This document shows, piece by piece, positions 24,452-38,207 of a DNA stretch of 39,622 bases; within the stretch, counting starts at the first letter, position 1, and each line of letters begins with the position of its first letter. Origin of the DNA: Oscillospiraceae bacterium. GTDB taxonomy: Bacteria; Bacillota; Clostridia; Oscillospirales; Oscillospiraceae. The translations under genes and the position numbers were made by a program. Below the pieces are notes generated by a model. It was not told the DNA's origin. It searched no databases and worked only from the letters and a program-made list of their open reading frames with translations. Location: assembly GCA_017519005.1 (NCBI GenBank), contig JAFWTG010000051.1, forward strand, positions 1 to 39,622, written 5' to 3'.

Positions 24452-24524
24452 CGTAGGGGCCGATGCCCACATCGGCCCTTGCCCCGATCGATCGGGAGGG
24501 CCGATGTGGGCATCGGCCCCTACG
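24452..24524. repeat. Perfect MITE-like palindrome between cbiQ and cbiO
   Basis: The 28-bp arm starting CGTAGGGGCCGATGCCCACA (24452-24479) has a perfect inverted copy at 24497-24524. The 17-bp centre contains the palindrome CCCGATCGATCGGG. Weaker outer matches exist: ATTCGGATTTGT before the left arm and CGCCAAATCCCAATTT after the right one. The absence of mismatches in the arms suggests recent insertion or conversion. It lies inside the transporter operon and would form a very strong RNA hairpin there. Confidence 0.9.
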
Positions 24525-27929: not shown

Positions 27930-27993
27930 GTGTTGGTTCTCCTTTTCTGTTGAACGTACCGCGGTGTCCCGCGGTGCTGTGGCTTCCAGGTGC

Positions 27994-28075
27994 CCGTAGG
28001 GGCCGATGCCTACGTCGGCCCTTCCTGCCGGTTTTGCCCGCAAACAAGGGCGGATGTGGGCATCCGCCCCTACGG
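27994..28075. repeat. MITE-like palindrome between licC and licA
   Basis: The left arm from CCGTAGGGGCCGATGCC (27994) and the right arm ending GGGCATCCGCCCCTACGG (28075) are 30-bp inverted copies with four mismatches around a 22-bp centre. They belong to the same family as the element at 24452, with older, diverged arms. It lies inside the licCAB transcript, 10 bp after the licC stop. Confidence 0.85.
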
Positions 28076-33259: not shown

Positions 33260-34294
33260 TCAGCGGCCCAGGCAGTCCTTCACGTAATCGGTGGTGAGGA
33301 GCTTCTTCACGACCCCGTCCACGTCCAGCAGGCGAGTGTTGGAGGAGGTGTAGCTCTCATCCGATTCGGTTTCCACCTTGCCCTCCACGAAGAATTTGTC
33401 GTAATTCAGATCCCGGTTGTCGGCGGCGACGCGGTAATAGTCGCCCATGTCCACAGCCCGCAGCCGCTCCTCGCGGGTGACGAGCGTTTCGTAGAGCTTT
33501 TCGCCGTGGCGGGTGCCGATGATCCGGGTGCCGGTGTCCCCGAAGAGCCGCTGCACGCCCTTGGCCAGATCTCCGATGGTGGAGGCGTCGGCCTTCTGGA
33601 CGAAGAGATCGCCGGGCTTGGCGTGCTCAAAGGCGAAGCGAACCAGCTCCACCGCTTCGTCCAGGTTCATCAGGAAGCGGGTCATCTCCGGGTTCGTGAT
33701 GGTGATGGGATTGCCGGCTCGGATCTGGTCGATAAAGAGGGGGATCACGGAGCCACGGCTGCACATAACGTTGCCGTAGCGGGTGCAGCAGATCACGGTG
33801 CCGCCCCGCTCCGCCGCAACCCGGGCGTTGGCGTAGATCACGTGCTCCATCATGGCCTTGGAGATGCCCATGGCGTTGATGGGATAGGCCGCCTTGTCGG
33901 TGGACAGGCAGACCACCTGTTTTACTCCCGCATCAATGGCGGCGTGGAGCACGTTGTCGGTGCCCTCCACGTTGGTTTTGACCGCCTGCATGGGGAAAAA
34001 CTCGCAGGAGGGGACCTGCTTCAGAGCCGCGGCGTGGAAAATGTAATCCACCCCGGGCATGGCGTCGGCCACGGAGCGGGGGTCCCGCACGTCGCCCACA
34101 TAGAACTTGACCTTCCGGGCCTGCTCCGGATAGCGGGCCTGCAGCTCATGCCGCATATCGTCCTGCTTCTTCTCGTCCCGGGAGAAGATGCGGATCTGCC
34201 CGACGTCCGTGGTCAGAAAGTGCTTCAGCACCGTGTGCCCGAAGGACCCGGTGCCGCCGGTGATCATCAAAGTTGCGTCAGAAAAGCTCGACAT
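33260..34294 (-). CDS. capE: CapE: UDP-GlcNAc 4,6-dehydratase/5-epimerase
   Basis: This short-chain-dehydrogenase enzyme (344 aa) starts the conversion of UDP-GlcNAc toward UDP-N-acetyl-L-fucosamine. The NAD motif is ITGGTGSFGHTVL (residues 11-23). The catalytic segment reads STDKAAYPINAMGISKAMME, where the usual Tyr-x-x-x-Lys is Met-x-x-x-Lys, a known feature of the CapE/FlaA1/PglF group. RYGNVMCSRGSVIPLF is also diagnostic. It is the first gene of the capEGF run and lies 38 bp after a recognisable promoter. FlaA1-like enzymes of pseudaminic acid synthesis are excluded by the capF and capG partners. Confidence 0.94.
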   Translation of the reverse strand: MSSFSDATLMITGGTGSFGHTVLKHFLTTDVGQIRIFSRDEKKQDDMRHELQARYPEQARKVKFYVGDVRDPRSVADAMPGVDYIFHAAALKQVPSCEFFPMQAVKTNVEGTDNVLHAAIDAGVKQVVCLSTDKAAYPINAMGISKAMMEHVIYANARVAAERGGTVICCTRYGNVMCSRGSVIPLFIDQIRAGNPITITNPEMTRFLMNLDEAVELVRFAFEHAKPGDLFVQKADASTIGDLAKGVQRLFGDTGTRIIGTRHGEKLYETLVTREERLRAVDMGDYYRVAADNRDLNYDKFFVEGKVETESDESYTSSNTRLLDVDGVVKKLLTTDYVKDCLGR

Positions 34295-34331
34295 TTCTTG
34301 AGTCCTCTTTCTGTTTGAATTATCAATCTAT

Positions 34332-34360
34332 ATAATATCAAAAAGCGTTCAGAATTGCAA
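34332..34360 (-). promoter_or_regulatory. Probable promoter of the capEGF operon
   Basis: On the minus strand TTGCAA (34355-34360), a 17-bp spacer and TATTAT (34332-34337) lie 38 bp upstream of capE. The match is moderate, but the area is AT-rich and there is no other candidate as good. Confidence 0.6.
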
Positions 34361-34458
34361 GCAGGAAACAAAGCATTTGCAGATTCGAAACTACTCACTG
34401 TATTCGGAACGAGAGTTCAAAATAGATAAAAATATTTAAGAAAAATTTCATAATAGTC

Positions 34459-34487
34459 TTGACAAATGAAAATATTATGTATATAAT
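34459..34487 (+). promoter_or_regulatory. Perfect-consensus sigma-A promoter upstream of the recombinase
   Basis: TTGACA (34459-34464), exactly 17 bp and TATAAT (34482-34487) form a full-consensus promoter, the strongest in the window. Transcription would start near 34494, at the left edge of the first terminator hairpin. Confidence 0.92.
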
Positions 34488-34491
34488 CAAG

Positions 34492-34580
34492 ATGTACTTT
34501 ATGAGGGAAAACTTACCTGCGTAGAGTACGTTTTTTTTGGACGATTACTCTGCAGGCGAGCAGAGAGTCGTTCTTTTTTT
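34492..34580 (+). promoter_or_regulatory. Tandem terminator/antiterminator leader
   Basis: Hairpin 1 pairs 34493-34503 with 34520-34530 (core GTACT/AGTAC, nearly continuous with G-U pairs) and is followed by eight T. Hairpin 2 (34539-34573, core CTCTGC/GCAGAG) is followed by seven T. The descending arm of hairpin 1, CCTGCGTAGAGTA (34516-34528), can instead pair with TACTCTGCAGG (34546-34556), an 11-bp helix with a 2-nt bulge that would break both terminators. This is the layout of an attenuator, or of a short terminated RNA. The ligand or factor is unknown, and I do not recognise a known riboswitch class. Confidence 0.75.
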
Positions 34581-34620
34581 ATTGTTTTGATATTTTGTTG
34601 GGAGAATAACCCAATAGGCC

Positions 34621-34775
34621 GCGGTTGCACATGTCCAAGGCTACAGTCAGAAACAAGAGAAATCTGAAGCATGAAATCAGATAGATGGAGAGATTAGGAT
34701 AGATGGAGGGATCAGGAGCTTCCCTCCTATTTGCGCCGCAACGTACAATTTGCGGAATGGACATGTGCAAACCGC
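34621..34775. repeat. Inverted repeat pair in the recombinase leader
   Basis: GCGGTTGCACATGTCC (34621-34636) and GGACATGTGCAAACCGC (34759-34775) are inverted copies differing by one inserted base, 122 bp apart. Their closeness to a tyrosine recombinase gene makes them candidate recombination or binding sites. The enclosed segment contains no promoter that I can see. Confidence 0.7.
34680..34727 (+). repeat. 18-bp tandem repeat and hairpin inside the leader
   Basis: GATAGATGGAGAGATTAG (34680-34697) is repeated as GATAGATGGAGGGATCAG (34698-34715), two mismatches. The second unit overlaps a hairpin, GGAGGGA (34705-34711) with TCCCTCC (34721-34727). The GGAGGG strand resembles a ribosome site held closed, but no good start codon follows it. 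Confidence 0.65.
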
Positions 34776-34916
34776 TTTGCCAGCCTATACACCGGAGGTA
34801 TGGTCAATGCGTTTAGATGCACCAGCTGCATCTGGGTACTTAAGATCGAGGTCCGGTGTTTGCTTTTGTCGGGCCCGTCTCTGGCCGGGGCGGGCTGTGT
34901 GAAAGGAGGGCTGGCC

Positions 34917-35816
34917 ATGAGCAGAAAACAAGTTAGACGTACGATGCGGTATATTATGAAAAAACTATTTCGACCTGGGGCATCAAAGCATTCTGCGAAG
35001 AAAACGGGAGATAGGCACAGGCTTATTTATTCATATCGAACCTATTACGCTTTCTTGGACGTGATTAATGTATTATTTCGATGGATTTTTCAGGAGAACA
35101 TCTCTATCGCTGCTCCGACGGATCTCACAGTGGATATTGTCATACGTTTCTTGCAATATAAAGCGAACAACTGCACGCAGACGACGGTCGACTGGTATCG
35201 CAGCATGCTGGCAGGTTTGGGGAACCACATTCGGGCGTACTATTGCATCGAAAACTATGATTTGCATGTGCCTCGGGTGTATGCAGCCAAAAAGACCAGT
35301 GGACTACGCGGTGCAGCGGCTACAATGCCGCGCGCAGAATATGACCTGATACTTGATTACTGCAGAGCGCATCCAAGCGGGTCTGCTTATACAGTCCTTT
35401 TAGAGGAACACCTGGCAGGTAGGGTGACAGACGTGGTTGAACGGATGCGCATCAACAATGTGACAGTCCAGATGAAGTGCAAAGGAGGTAAATTACTTTA
35501 CCGTCCGGTTACTTTAGACATGGCCGAATTGCTTGCAGACCCGCGTTTTGCAGCCTGGAGGACCGCAGATGGCGGCTTTACTCTGCCGAGAAGTGGATCA
35601 GTGAATCAATTTCTGAGGAGACTCGAAAAGCGGTTTCACTGGGATTATCACAGCTTCCACGACATCAGGCGTTTGCTGGCGCAGGAACATTATGATGGAC
35701 TCCGGCGCATGGGAGTCAAAAGGGATAGAGCCCTTGGCCTGACTGGGCTGTGGCTCAATCATGGCCCCCGGAGACAGGCGCTGGTGCTGAAGTCTTATGT
35801 GAAGAATCCATGGTAG
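34917..35816 (+). CDS. Divergent tyrosine recombinase/integrase
   Basis: This site-specific DNA recombinase (299 aa) shows the catalytic set of the tyrosine family in order: Arg in EEHLAGRVTDVVERMR, Lys in MKCKGGKLLY, His-x-x-Arg in SFHDIRRLLA, a second His in LWLNHGPRR and the nucleophile Tyr in VLKSYVKNPW at the extreme C-terminus. The N-terminal part (about 30-125) looks like a SAM-like core-binding domain. The ATG at 34917 has AAAGGAGGG upstream; the frame stays open back to 34731 but has no ribosome site there. Base composition is clearly more AT-rich than the flanking glycan genes, a sign of transfer. It may invert or integrate a local segment; target sites are unproven. Confidence 0.8.
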   Translation: MSRKQVRRTMRYIMKKLFRPGASKHSAKKTGDRHRLIYSYRTYYAFLDVINVLFRWIFQENISIAAPTDLTVDIVIRFLQYKANNCTQTTVDWYRSMLAGLGNHIRAYYCIENYDLHVPRVYAAKKTSGLRGAAATMPRAEYDLILDYCRAHPSGSAYTVLLEEHLAGRVTDVVERMRINNVTVQMKCKGGKLLYRPVTLDMAELLADPRFAAWRTADGGFTLPRSGSVNQFLRRLEKRFHWDYHSFHDIRRLLAQEHYDGLRRMGVKRDRALGLTGLWLNHGPRRQALVLKSYVKNPW

Positions 35817-36309
35817 TTCGAATACCTGAATCGTGGATGAAGATACATTTATCCTCACATTCAGAATTGATGCGGGGAGCCGGCAAGTTCAAGAAATATC
35901 TCTGACGTAAAGGTTAGGCAAAGTCCAAAGATTTGTCCACACCCTCCCGCGGCAATTTCAGCTGGGCCTGAACACATGGTGCGGAGAAGAGCAAAATAAC
36001 CTGGCATAAACAGGCCGTGGCTGCTTGCACCGGAGTGAGCGTGCGTCATTCCAGTTTACGGAAAGAATGCCCACTTCTTCAGTAGTCTGAAGTGGGCATT
36101 CTGATACTTTTGCGGTGTTTTCGCCTTGCAGAATGACGTGAAAAGAGCGGCAAACGGGAGGACCTGCCGTCGCGGCTTGGTTCAAGTACAGTCAGAGAAC
36201 AGACGGAGATTGTAGTTTTTTCAATTCAGATCATGCCAACCGGAAGGAAGGCCAGATTGATTTGGAAACCGAAAAGAACGGAGTTCCACAAAACTCACTG
36301 ATCGCCTGA
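35817..36309. other. 493-bp gene-free region downstream of the recombinase
   Basis: No coding sequence is recognisable in any frame. The region contains the long hairpin at 36064-36102, flanked by an inverted CGTCATTC (36044-36051) and GAATGACG (36131-36138). The rest looks like degenerate, moderately AT-rich sequence. Confidence 0.6.
36064..36102. terminator. Strong hairpin, probable terminator
   Basis: AGAATGCCCACTTC and GAAGTGGGCATTCT form a perfect 14-bp stem with an 11-nt loop, about 250 bp after the recombinase stop and 210 bp beyond the end of the convergent phosphoesterase gene. No clean U-run follows immediately on either strand, so termination is probable but not certain. Confidence 0.65.
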
Positions 36310-37179
36310 TCAGGAGATGTGCACCACGCAAACCTCCGGCATGTTGAACACCCGGGGCACCTTGCCGTGACCGGCCAGGCCGCTGGAGATGAGCAGCTGG
36401 ACTCTGCCGTAATCAAAGTGCCCCATATCCTCGTCGGGAAACCAGCCCTGCATGGGGGCGTAGAGGCCGCCGAAGAAGGGAATACGGATCACACCGCCGT
36501 GGGTGTGGCCGCTGAGGAACAGATCAATATCCCAGTTCTTGTAGGCCTCCACGAAGATGATGGTATCCGGCAGATGGGCCAGGACGATGGTGGGAAGGCC
36601 GGAGGCCTCCATCTGCTTCATCAGCCGATACTCGGGAGAAGCGTGATAATCCTCCGGCGTGCGGCCAAAGGGGTACAGATGGCCTACGGTGCCGCCCAGG
36701 CAGACCTTGTTTCCGCCGAGCTCAGCGGTGACGCAGCTTTCATCCAGCAATACGGCCCCGGCGGCCTCGATTCCAGGAGCCAGATCCGTACCGCCGGAGC
36801 TCATATACGCTTTTTCGTGATTCCCATAGGAGACGTAGACCGGGGCGATTTTCCGAAGCTCTGCCAGCAGTTCCAGAAAACGCCGGACCTGCGCCTGGTC
36901 CGCGTCACCGTCGATCATATCGCCCACGGAAAAGATCACGTCCGGCTTCTGCCCCCGAATCTTCTCCAGCAGCTCCTCGTTGCCTTCGCCGAATTCCTTG
37001 CCGTGGAGATCCGTCAGGACGACGGCGGTGAAGGGCTGCCCGATGCCCTTGATTTGGATGTCATACGCATGGACAGCAAGACCGGAATTGCACACAAGAA
37101 TGGAAATCCCCACAGCGATCCCGCAGATCAGGATCACAGCAGCCAGAATCCCCAGACCGATATGAAAGCGTTTTCTCAT
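36310..37179 (-). CDS. Membrane-anchored metallophosphoesterase
   Basis: This calcineurin-like phosphoesterase (289 aa) has an N-terminal membrane helix (about residues 7-28, IGLGILAAVILICGIAVGISI), so the catalytic domain faces outward. The metal-binding motifs are AVVLTDLHG, SVGDMIDGD, VSYGNHE and LSGHTHGGVIRIPFFGG, the order seen in the YkuE/YaeI group. The start at 37179 overlaps the rfbB stop (ATGA), so it is translated with the dTDP-sugar genes; a longer in-frame form reaches into rfbB and is rejected. Substrate is unknown. A role in trimming a lipid-linked or cell-surface phosphate during polymer assembly is a reasonable guess. Confidence 0.88.
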   Translation of the reverse strand: MRKRFHIGLGILAAVILICGIAVGISILVCNSGLAVHAYDIQIKGIGQPFTAVVLTDLHGKEFGEGNEELLEKIRGQKPDVIFSVGDMIDGDADQAQVRRFLELLAELRKIAPVYVSYGNHEKAYMSSGGTDLAPGIEAAGAVLLDESCVTAELGGNKVCLGGTVGHLYPFGRTPEDYHASPEYRLMKQMEASGLPTIVLAHLPDTIIFVEAYKNWDIDLFLSGHTHGGVIRIPFFGGLYAPMQGWFPDEDMGHFDYGRVQLLISSGLAGHGKVPRVFNMPEVCVVHIS

Positions 37180-38207
37180 CCCAAAGTTTCCCGATTTCCG
37201 TACATTTTTTCGTAGTAATTCCGATACTCCCCGGAGAGGATGGTCTCCCACCAATCCCGATGGGTCAGATACCAATCGATGGTCCGGTCCAGGCCGTCGG
37301 CGAACTTTGTCTCCGGCAGCCAGCCCAGCTCCCGGTGGATCTTGCTGGGGTCGATGGCGTAGCGCATGTCGTGGCCCTTGCGGTCCGCCACGAAGGTGAT
37401 GAGGCTCTCAGGCTTGCCGAGCTTCCGGCAGATCAGCTTCACGATGTCGATGTTCCGCATCTCGTTGTGGCCGCCCACGTTGTAGACCTCGCCCACGGTA
37501 CCCTTGCGGAGGATCAGGTCGATGGCCCGGCAGTGGTCCTCCACGTAGAGCCAGTCGCGGACGTTTTCGCCCTTGCCGTAGACAGGCAGGGGCTTGTCGT
37601 TCAGGGCGTTGGCGATCATCAGGGGGATCAGCTTCTCGGGGAAGTGGTAGGGCCCGTAGTTGTTGGAGCAGCGGGAGATGGTGGCGGGTAGGCCGAAGGT
37701 CCGGCAGTAGGCCCCCACCAGCAGGTCTGCAGAGGCCTTGGAGGCGGAGTAGGGGCTGGAGGTATGGATCGGCGTCTCCTCGGTGAAGAAGAGCTCGGGC
37801 CGGTCCAGAGGCAGGTCGCCATAGACCTCGTCGGTGGAGACCTGGTGATAGCGCTTCGTGCCGTACCTGCGGCAGGCGTCCATCATCACCTGGGTGCCCA
37901 GAATGTTGGTCTGCAGGAAGATCTCCGGGGTCTCGATGGAGCGATCCACGTGGGATTCGGCGGCAAAGTTTACCACCGCGTCGGGCTGCTCCTTCTCAAA
38001 AATCTCATAGACCGCGGGCCGGTCGCAGATGTTCACCTTGTAGAAGGCAAAGTTGGGGTTCTTCAGCGCCTCCGCCAGGGTGGTGAGGTTGCCCGCGTAG
38101 GTCAAGGCGTCCAGACAGACGATCCGATCCTCGGGATGGTTTTTCAGTTCAAAGTAGATGAAGTTGGCGCCGATGAAGCCCGCGCCGCCGGTGAGTAAAA
38201 TGGTCAT
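37176..38207 (-). CDS. rfbB: dTDP-glucose 4,6-dehydratase
   Basis: RfbB/RmlB (343 aa) converts dTDP-glucose to dTDP-4-keto-6-deoxyglucose in the cytoplasm. Clear motifs are LLTGGAGFIGANFIY (NAD binding, residues 4-18), AAESHVDRSIETPEIFLQTN, STDEVYGDL, YSASKASADLL with the catalytic Tyr and Lys, and SNNYGPYHFPEKLIPLMI. It lies 10 bp after rfbA in the same direction and overlaps the phosphoesterase gene. No rfbC or rfbD follows; with the aminotransferase upstream, the keto sugar may go to an amino-deoxy sugar rather than rhamnose. Confidence 0.97.
   Translation of the reverse strand: MTILLTGGAGFIGANFIYFELKNHPEDRIVCLDALTYAGNLTTLAEALKNPNFAFYKVNICDRPAVYEIFEKEQPDAVVNFAAESHVDRSIETPEIFLQTNILGTQVMMDACRRYGTKRYHQVSTDEVYGDLPLDRPELFFTEETPIHTSSPYSASKASADLLVGAYCRTFGLPATISRCSNNYGPYHFPEKLIPLMIANALNDKPLPVYGKGENVRDWLYVEDHCRAIDLILRKGTVGEVYNVGGHNEMRNIDIVKLICRKLGKPESLITFVADRKGHDMRYAIDPSKIHRELGWLPETKFADGLDRTIDWYLTHRDWWETILSGEYRNYYEKMYGNRETLG

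What the first reader, a model, noticed from the sequence alone, without database searches (positions are those of the whole stretch)
34459..34916. Recombinase gene behind a perfect promoter, two tandem terminators and an alternative antiterminator fold
A full-consensus promoter is followed at once by two intrinsic terminators with U8 and U7 tracts. Segment 34516-34528 of the first can pair with 34546-34556 of the second (11 bp, 2-nt bulge), breaking both. This strong-promoter, closed-gate design is what a conditional switch, or a small terminated RNA, would look like. More structure follows before the 34917 start codon: an inverted repeat, an 18-bp tandem repeat and a GGAGGG hairpin. I recognise no known riboswitch class.
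Basis: partly seen in the sequence, partly recalled or inferred. Interest (0 to 1): 0.7.

Follow-up and report, generated by a model that had tools for sequence, protein, structure and literature searches.

The report
Double-locked leader of a DNA recombinase
A gene for a DNA-cutting-and-joining enzyme sits behind a very strong start signal that is followed at once by two stop signals and a tightly folded RNA, so it is probably kept almost always off; blocking or losing the RNA's first few letters could open both stops together.

Summary
In detail: a 12/12 promoter (34459-34487), two tandem intrinsic terminators (T1 34494-34538, T2 34539-34580) and an 11-bp alternative pairing (34516-34528 with 34546-34556) precede a diverged tyrosine recombinase (34917-35816). 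All are kept in the single orthologue found (L004, same genus, 85% protein identity); the pairing is kept letter for letter and is matched by only 4 and 1 of 1000 hairpin-preserving shuffles. 'Breaking both' is wrong in mechanism: T1's decision falls before segment 34546-34556 is transcribed. But folding of partial transcripts shows a coherent coupled gate: if T1's first ten bases are blocked, or four or more are missing, T1 fails and the 2:3 helix dominates while T2 must form, in both species. Downstream, a conserved 300-nt structured leader is predicted to pair with the ribosome-binding site. Best reading: a default-off, layered attenuator that rations the recombinase, functionally like the pneumococcal tvrR attenuator; what opens it is unknown. 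No Rfam class matches. The evidence is computational and rests on two species.

The parts
34459..34487 (+). Full-consensus sigma-70/sigma-A type promoter, TTGACA-17-TATAAT
   Evidence: 12 of 12; same hexamers and a 17-nt spacer in the orthologue
34494..34503 (+). Segment 1: 5' arm of T1, at the predicted transcript start (start inferred from the promoter)
   Evidence: fold; identical in L004
34494..34538 (+). Terminator T1: 10-bp stem extended by 3 bp, then U8 (34531-34538)
   Evidence: dG -15.6 (window), -15.3 (L004)
34516..34528 (+). Segment 2: 3' side of T1, pairs alternatively with segment 3
   Evidence: sequence; identical in L004
34539..34580 (+). Terminator T2: 14 pairs with one bulge, 6-nt loop, then U7 (34574-34580)
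   Evidence: dG -19.8 (window), -19.4 (L004); one search lists its core
34546..34556 (+). Segment 3: 5' arm and loop of T2, partner of segment 2 in the T2 antiterminator
   Evidence: 11 bp with a 2-nt bulge; identical in L004; 4 of 1000 and 1 of 1000 shuffles
34598..34614 (+). Small hairpin TTGGG/CCCAA; GTGGG/CCCAC in L004 (outer pair changed on both sides, my reading)
   Evidence: sequences; one both-sides change is counted in 34590-34916 with the window's structure, none with L004's
34621..34775 (+). Structured domain A: long helix GCGGTTGCACATGTCCA / TGGACATGTGCAAACCGC enclosing hairpins and the tandem repeat
34680..34715 (+). Two tandem 18-bp copies, 89% alike
34705..34727 (+). GGAGGG/CCCTCC hairpin; stem kept, loop changed in L004
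34779..34915 (+). Structured domain B: GCCAGCCT (34779-34786) pairs with GGGCTGGC (34908-34915), and CUUUUG with GAAAGG, covering the Shine-Dalgarno (34902-34910)
   Evidence: same architecture from separate folds of both species and in the consensus fold
34917..35816 (+). Tyrosine recombinase, 299 aa
   Evidence: R169, K189, H248, R251, H282, Y294 invariant in an alignment of 5 sequences; relative L012 hits PF00589 at 5.5e-12; hhalign probability 94%, E 1.7e-7; dN 0.08, dS 0.49 to L004
34332..34360 (-). Possible divergent promoter of the polysaccharide operon (context only)
   Evidence: 9 of 12 match; this stretch aligns forward with L004

Best explanation
The region is the attenuated leader of a tyrosine recombinase gene. 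Transcription starts often from a perfect promoter, but most transcripts should stop at T1 (about 45 nt) or T2 (about 87 nt); those that pass carry a folded 5' leader that covers the ribosome-binding site. The gene is off by default and expressed in rare events, which suits an enzyme that rearranges DNA. The terminators are coupled: T1's 5' arm (segment 1) is the very start of the transcript. While it is free, T1 forms and T2 follows. When it is occupied, or missing because transcription started four or more bases downstream, T1 cannot form and freed segment 2 pairs with segment 3, holding T2 open. Shown on sequence: promoter, terminators, alternative pairing, their conservation in a second species, predicted structures. 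Inferred: that termination happens, that the coupling is used, that the RBS is closed in the cell. Unknown: the signal and the recombinase's DNA target.
For: 12/12 promoter and two terminators, kept in L004 while the intergenic DNA just upstream (34350-34449) is 47-63% identical and 34446-34579 is 85%. Segments 1, 2 and 3 identical in L004. Cross-pairing above hairpin-preserving shuffles: 4/1000 and 1/1000; with segment 1 blocked, 0 of 300 shuffles of the window's sequence reach the observed pairing at +73. With segment 1 blocked, P(2:3) is 0.97-1.00 from +63 to +75 in both species; for starts 4 nt or more downstream it is 0.74-1.00 at the three exposures tried. Leader 34618-34916 folds at z -3.8 (0 of 200 shuffles), that of L004 at z -6.0 (0 of 100), with the SD mostly paired in both (mean unpaired probability 0.25 and 0.32). 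Recombinase under purifying selection. Precedent: in the pneumococcal tvr locus removing a terminator-like hairpin before the tyrosine recombinase gene tvrR raised its transcription more than 40-fold (PMC6265443, abstract and passages seen).
Against: Only one orthologue was found (2 of 199 relatives with own; 1 relative in genome contigs), so covariation is nearly absent: 1 of 97 pairs. In the finished RNA the 2:3 form loses by 14-17 kcal/mol, and with segment 1 blocked it holds only about 0.08 (window) or 0.00 (L004); in partial transcripts it falls to 0.08 at +77. At +63 to +65 the 2:3 form is favoured at equilibrium even with segment 1 free (0.89-0.94 window, 0.67-0.72 L004), so the off state relies on T1 having formed first and on T2 taking over by +71. 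No agent acting on segment 1 is known. The substitution test is mixed: with the window's structure 7 of 186 paired against 20 of 114 unpaired positions changed (p 1e-4), with L004's structure p 0.42; the minus strand gives p 0.0009 and 0.086; 2 of 10 coding controls (one of five pieces, both structures) fell below 0.05; for T1/T2 itself p is 0.60 and 0.16 and only 20 of 27 and 22 of 26 pairs are kept, in part because the alignment is shifted at T2. SD pairing is not unusual: 27 other recombinase genes have median unpaired probability 0.34 (p 0.63 for the nine relatives against them).
Confidence: 0.5

Rival explanations
1. Unconditional double terminator: T1 and T2 are simply leaky stops that throttle the recombinase; the 2:3 complementarity is a by-product (for example of a decayed duplication).
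For: T1+T2 is by far the most stable state of the finished RNA; the tvr attenuator as described works without a reported antiterminator (passages).
Against: T1 and T2 are not detectably similar end to end (119 and 468 of 1000 shuffles as good), though short resemblances in the arms remain possible; cross-pairing exceeds shuffles and is unchanged in L004.
Confidence: 0.25
2. The promoter and terminators make a free-standing small RNA (about 45 and 87 nt), and the recombinase has another promoter or only read-through.
For: Promoter followed at once by two terminators; conserved in two species.
Against: The 44-nt form shows no more complementarity than shuffles to the recombinase leader (20 of 20 shuffles as good) or to the polysaccharide mRNA start (9 of 20) (other targets not completed); loop positions outside segments 2 and 3 differ between the species; no Rfam match.
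Confidence: 0.12
3. The hairpins downstream (34621-34775) are DNA sites of the recombinase itself, an invertible segment or a folded single-strand site, rather than an RNA switch.
For: Perfect 13-bp inverted repeat with palindromic TTGnACATGTnCAA copies; 7 of 7 distant relatives counted (L012, L077, L078, L080, L081, L083, L084) have strong hairpins upstream, 15-33 kcal/mol beyond the mean of six shuffles each; the 11-nt loop of the L084 hairpin matches the reverse complement of L083's at 9 of 11 and its forward at 2 of 11.
Against: Same orientation in both species; no promoter-like site inside the repeat; TTGCACATGTCCA is in 13 of 76 loci then held, all 13 from the two species' own locus; the window pair itself hardly exceeds shuffles in that hairpin measure (-2.6, -6.7; controls median -5.7).
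Confidence: 0.13

Closest known systems
Pneumococcal tvr attenuator before tyrosine recombinase gene tvrR (PMC6265443; abstract and passages seen)
   Same: Terminator-like hairpin between promoter and a tyrosine recombinase gene, limiting its expression
   Different: tvr: one weak terminator (19 pairs, five uridines) after toxin-antitoxin genes; here two terminators (U8, U7) right at the promoter, an alternative pairing linking them, and a structured leader over the RBS; effect not measured here
C. difficile cwpV switch (PMC2784873; abstract and passages seen)
   Same: Promoter upstream, terminator 60-70 nt into the transcript, inverted repeats between promoter and gene
   Different: There inversion is proposed to make or break the terminator and the gene is a cell-wall protein; here the terminators lie outside the inverted repeat and both species show the same orientation
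trp-type three-segment attenuators and protein-mediated antitermination (recalled; PMC3369936 passages seen for ANTAR)
   Same: Mutually exclusive helices 1:2, 2:3, 3:4
   Different: Here 1:2 is itself a terminator and segment 1 is the 5' end of the RNA; no conserved leader peptide, no Rfam match, no ANTAR motif; RAT not tested beyond Rfam

Membership tests
Tyrosine recombinase | Catalytic R-K-HxxR-H-Y set | tested here: met
   Invariant in an alignment of 5 sequences; the role of each residue is recalled, not from a call
Tyrosine recombinase | Match to a family profile or fold | tested here: inconclusive
   No Pfam at 1e-3, Phage_int_SAM_4 at E 0.065, no PHROG at E 1; relative L012 hits PF00589 and aligns at 94% probability; AlphaFold model too poor (pLDDT 39.8) and Foldseek gave 0 matches at 0.001
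tvr-type recombinase attenuator | Intrinsic terminator between promoter and recombinase gene | tested here: met
   T1 and T2
tvr-type recombinase attenuator | Hairpin removal raises recombinase transcription | not testable with these tools
   needs a reporter or mutant
tvr-type recombinase attenuator | Toxin-antitoxin genes between promoter and recombinase | tested here: not met
   no ORF of 80 aa or more lies between 34494 and 34730 (shorter ORFs not listed)
cwpV-type inverton | Inverted repeats whose inversion affects the terminator | tested here: not met
   T1/T2 lie outside the 34625/34758 repeat; the 10-bp pair 34334/34585 is not kept in L004 by my reading
ANTAR target RNA | Two hairpins whose loops carry A1 and G4 | tested here: not met
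   T2 loop AGGCGA lacks G4 in the window (L004: AGGGAA has both); T1's 9-nt loop begins with G; definition from PMC3369936 passages
Rfam riboswitch, T-box or other curated RNA | Match at gathering score | tested here: not met
   0 of 4227 families

The most novel reading that the evidence does not exclude
A 5'-end-sensing double gate: because T1's stem begins at the first transcribed base, the choice of start site, or anything that binds the first ten bases, switches two successive terminators at once through the 2:3 helix, and a third, translational gate follows; a new attenuation logic used to ration a DNA recombinase.
Probability: 0.2. Interest if true: 0.75.

Novelty: new variant of a known kind. 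Interest (0 to 1): 0.5.

Why it matters
Recombinases that flip or move DNA must be kept scarce, and RNA-level control of them is described in few cases that I could find. A leader in which one short 5' segment governs two consecutive terminators would be a compact design, and a short in vitro transcription experiment would decide it.

Tried and rejected
Inverton around the promoter: 10-bp repeats near it (34334/34585; 34446/34952) sit in AT-rich DNA, the first is not kept in L004 by my reading, and the diverged stretch upstream aligns better forward (score 46) than reversed (19; shuffle mean 18.6). Leader peptide: frames upstream of 34917 are shifted by a 2-nt indel in L004. Antisense sRNA: no signal in the two targets tested.

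More leader homologues: 5' leader DNA in 24 genus genomes gave 3 hits, own, orthologue and one promoter-only match in G017. Downstream leader DNA in 400 family genomes gave 4, own plus L009, L010 and L011; I judge these chance (L009 and L010 looked at; L010's match lies inside a coding ORF although an integrase-like ORF is near; L011 has the same query range as L010 and was not opened). The domain-B RNA model in 300 family genomes gave 2, own plus L053, judged chance. Viral contigs: one leader pattern gave 0, another 23 stretches, none with a segment-3 partner on inspection; the protein profile matched 62 stretches, none a relative. The promoter-then-T7 pattern matched in 7 of 24 genus genomes; the 8 sites outside the two species, all looked at, front unrelated genes.

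Protein relatives: none in phages or plasmids with the window protein; none in viral contigs with L080 and L078 proteins; no plasmid match for L012, no phage match for L078. Order: 3 of 394 genomes (own, L012, L013); L013 showed no recombinase in its ORF list and was dropped. Class: 4 of 391 (own, L077, L078, L079); L079, with stops inside, was dropped. Phylum, wider profile: 78 of 239 genomes at E 1e-8, mostly general recombinases; 29 loci opened. The nearest plasmid protein hits came from 18 records, of which 7 were opened.

The wider 'hairpin before the recombinase' comparison set 9 relatives, window pair included, against 27 other recombinases (best 80-nt dG medians -36.8 and -24.7, p 5e-5; excess over six shuffles -21.1 and -5.7, p 0.0009). 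Five plasmid hits (L082, L112-L115; excess -28.8, -10.1, -21.6, -6.1, -16.2) were left out of the count; L077 has 175 nt upstream instead of 300; four short rows stayed in the count but not in the tree, where the nine are not one clade (2 changes). It is a lead, not part of the main claim.

Full report
What is there. The window is contig C55 of an incomplete genome (2.29 Mb in 141 contigs); its one orthologue is in a record named 'uncultured Clostridia bacterium', apparently the same contig as G013:C27 of the same genus (equal length and match). The feature lies between a polysaccharide gene pointing left (33260-34294) and a metallophosphoesterase gene pointing left (36310-37275). From 34459 rightward come a 12/12 promoter, T1, T2, about 300 nt of folded leader, and a 299-aa tyrosine recombinase (34917-35816). 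The 34300-34600 stretch has 31% G+C and the recombinase 49%, against 62% for the window, which may point to foreign origin.

The recombinase. It has no Pfam match at 1e-3. A profile of it and its orthologue found L012, whose protein hits PF00589 at 5.5e-12 and aligns at 94% probability over 196 columns. In an alignment with L004, L012, L077 and L078 the residues R169, K189, H248, R251, H282 and Y294 are invariant. dN is 0.08 and dS 0.49 to L004, so the protein is kept by selection. In a 37-row tree the pair sits on a long branch (2.3) inside a supported 23-row group that includes plasmid-borne recombinases. The AlphaFold model is not usable (pLDDT 39.8).

Distribution. The protein was found in 2 of 199 relatives including own, in 1 stretch of genome contigs and in no plasmid or phage record searched. 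Among 24 genus genomes only own and G013 hold the 5' leader (a third hit is a promoter alone). Only 4 of the 24 are at least 90% complete, so absence is weak evidence. In G010 and G003 other genes lie beyond the matching polysaccharide gene.

Terminators and the alternative helix. T1 is -15.6, T2 -19.8 and together -35.4 kcal/mol; in L004 -15.3, -19.4 and -35.2. Forcing the 2:3 helix gives -21.6 and -18.6, so a finished RNA prefers the terminators. Termination is decided during synthesis. Segment 3 occupies +53 to +63, whereas T1's U-tract begins at +38 (+39 in L004), so the pairing cannot break T1. For T2 the order is favourable: with segment 1 blocked, P(2:3) is 0.98-0.99 in the window and 0.97-1.00 in L004 for RNA exposed to +63 through +75, then 0.08 at +77 in both. 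T2's U-tract is +81 to +87, and about 12-14 nt are normally hidden in the polymerase (general knowledge), so +69 to +75 is the relevant stretch. With segment 1 free, P(2:3) is 0.01 or less from +71 on, though at +63 and +65 it is 0.89-0.94 (window) and 0.67-0.72 (L004) at equilibrium. Moving the start 4 nt downstream drops T1 to about -6 kcal/mol and raises P(2:3) to 0.74-0.99 (window) and 0.88-1.00 (L004) over three exposures; 3 nt gives 0.13-0.97 and 0.26-0.93; 2 nt gives 0.69 and 0.43 at the first exposure but 0.06 or less at the two later ones. These are equilibrium folds of partial transcripts, not kinetics, and the start site itself is inferred.

Is the cross-pairing chance? Keeping both hairpins but shuffling their pairs and loops, 4 of 1000 (window) and 1 of 1000 (L004) reach the observed duplex energy, and 0 of 300 (window only) reach the observed pairing at +73 with segment 1 blocked. 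T1 and T2 are not significantly similar overall. Segments 1, 2 and 3 are identical in L004, where several loop positions differ. With two species this is suggestive only.

The folded leader. From 34618 to 34916 the RNA folds at -121.8 kcal/mol (z -3.8, 0 of 200), L004 at -135.7 (z -6.0, 0 of 100), both with the same outer helix and the same domain over the RBS; the minus strand is also structured (z -3.6, 1 of 200). A consensus fold of 34600-34920 has 97 pairs, none broken, one changed on both sides; it is derived from these two sequences. Substitutions avoid paired positions under the window's structure (7 of 186 against 20 of 114, p 1e-4) but not under L004's (20 of 212 against 12 of 93, p 0.42); the minus strand (p 0.0009 and 0.086) and one of five coding pieces (p 0.005 and 0.025) also gave small values. 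SD pairing in the window (unpaired 0.25) is not unusual beside 27 control genes (median 0.34). I take the structure as likely, its function as inferred.

Wider lead. Distant relatives on plasmids and in other families carry strong hairpins just upstream of the gene, three of them sharing GCATTAAC/GTTAATGC arms. In L083/L084 the Shine-Dalgarno lies inside a long stem (unpaired probability 0.0), and the loop of one resembles the reverse complement of the other's (9 of 11 against 2 of 11). This fits either RNA control or a recombination site and is left open; the window pair is not extreme by that measure.

Literature. Searches of the held library (at most 15 papers listed per search) led to the tvr attenuator as the nearest precedent (PMC6265443; abstract and passages), the cwpV switch (PMC2784873; abstract and passages) and ANTAR (PMC3369936; passages). 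Of PMC13178558, on attenuation and bursting, I saw abstract and outline. None of the titles and abstract openings listed described a coupled double terminator before a recombinase; most subscription papers are not held.

Verdict. A conserved leader, most likely default-off, of a diverged tyrosine recombinase; a new variant of recombinase attenuation. Coupled opening through segment 1 is the most interesting part and is cheap to test.

Noticed in passing
35650-36749: All 22 bins of 50 nt are 90-100% identical to L004, against 60-90% for 35000-35649 and 64-86% for 36750-37049: a mosaic that suggests recent exchange between the two species.
   Followed up: partly
34625-34638 and 34757-34770: Two near-palindromes TTGnACATGTnCAA in opposite orientation (0 and 1 mismatch); 4 matches with up to 2 mismatches in the window against 0.5 expected. 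Could be operator or recombinase sites.
   Followed up: partly
L083 and L084, last 90 nt before the recombinase: A very long hairpin holds the Shine-Dalgarno; the 11-nt loop looks inverted between the two genomes (9 of 11 to the reverse complement), as if the spacer flips.
   Followed up: partly
L078, L080, L081 upstream of the recombinase: Long hairpins with shared arms GCATTAAC/GTTAATGC beginning 35-92 nt before the start, two of them on tiny plasmids pRGI00546 and pRGI00782.
   Followed up: partly
36064-36102: Perfect 14-bp hairpin AGAATGCCCACTTC/GAAGTGGGCATTCT between recombinase and the next gene; a 3-nt indel in L004 keeps it foldable by my reading.
   Followed up: no
24452-24524: Perfect inverted repeat of about 28 bp, part of which recurs near 27993-28010 and, over 18 nt, in L007 of another genus member: perhaps a dispersed intergenic repeat.
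   Followed up: no
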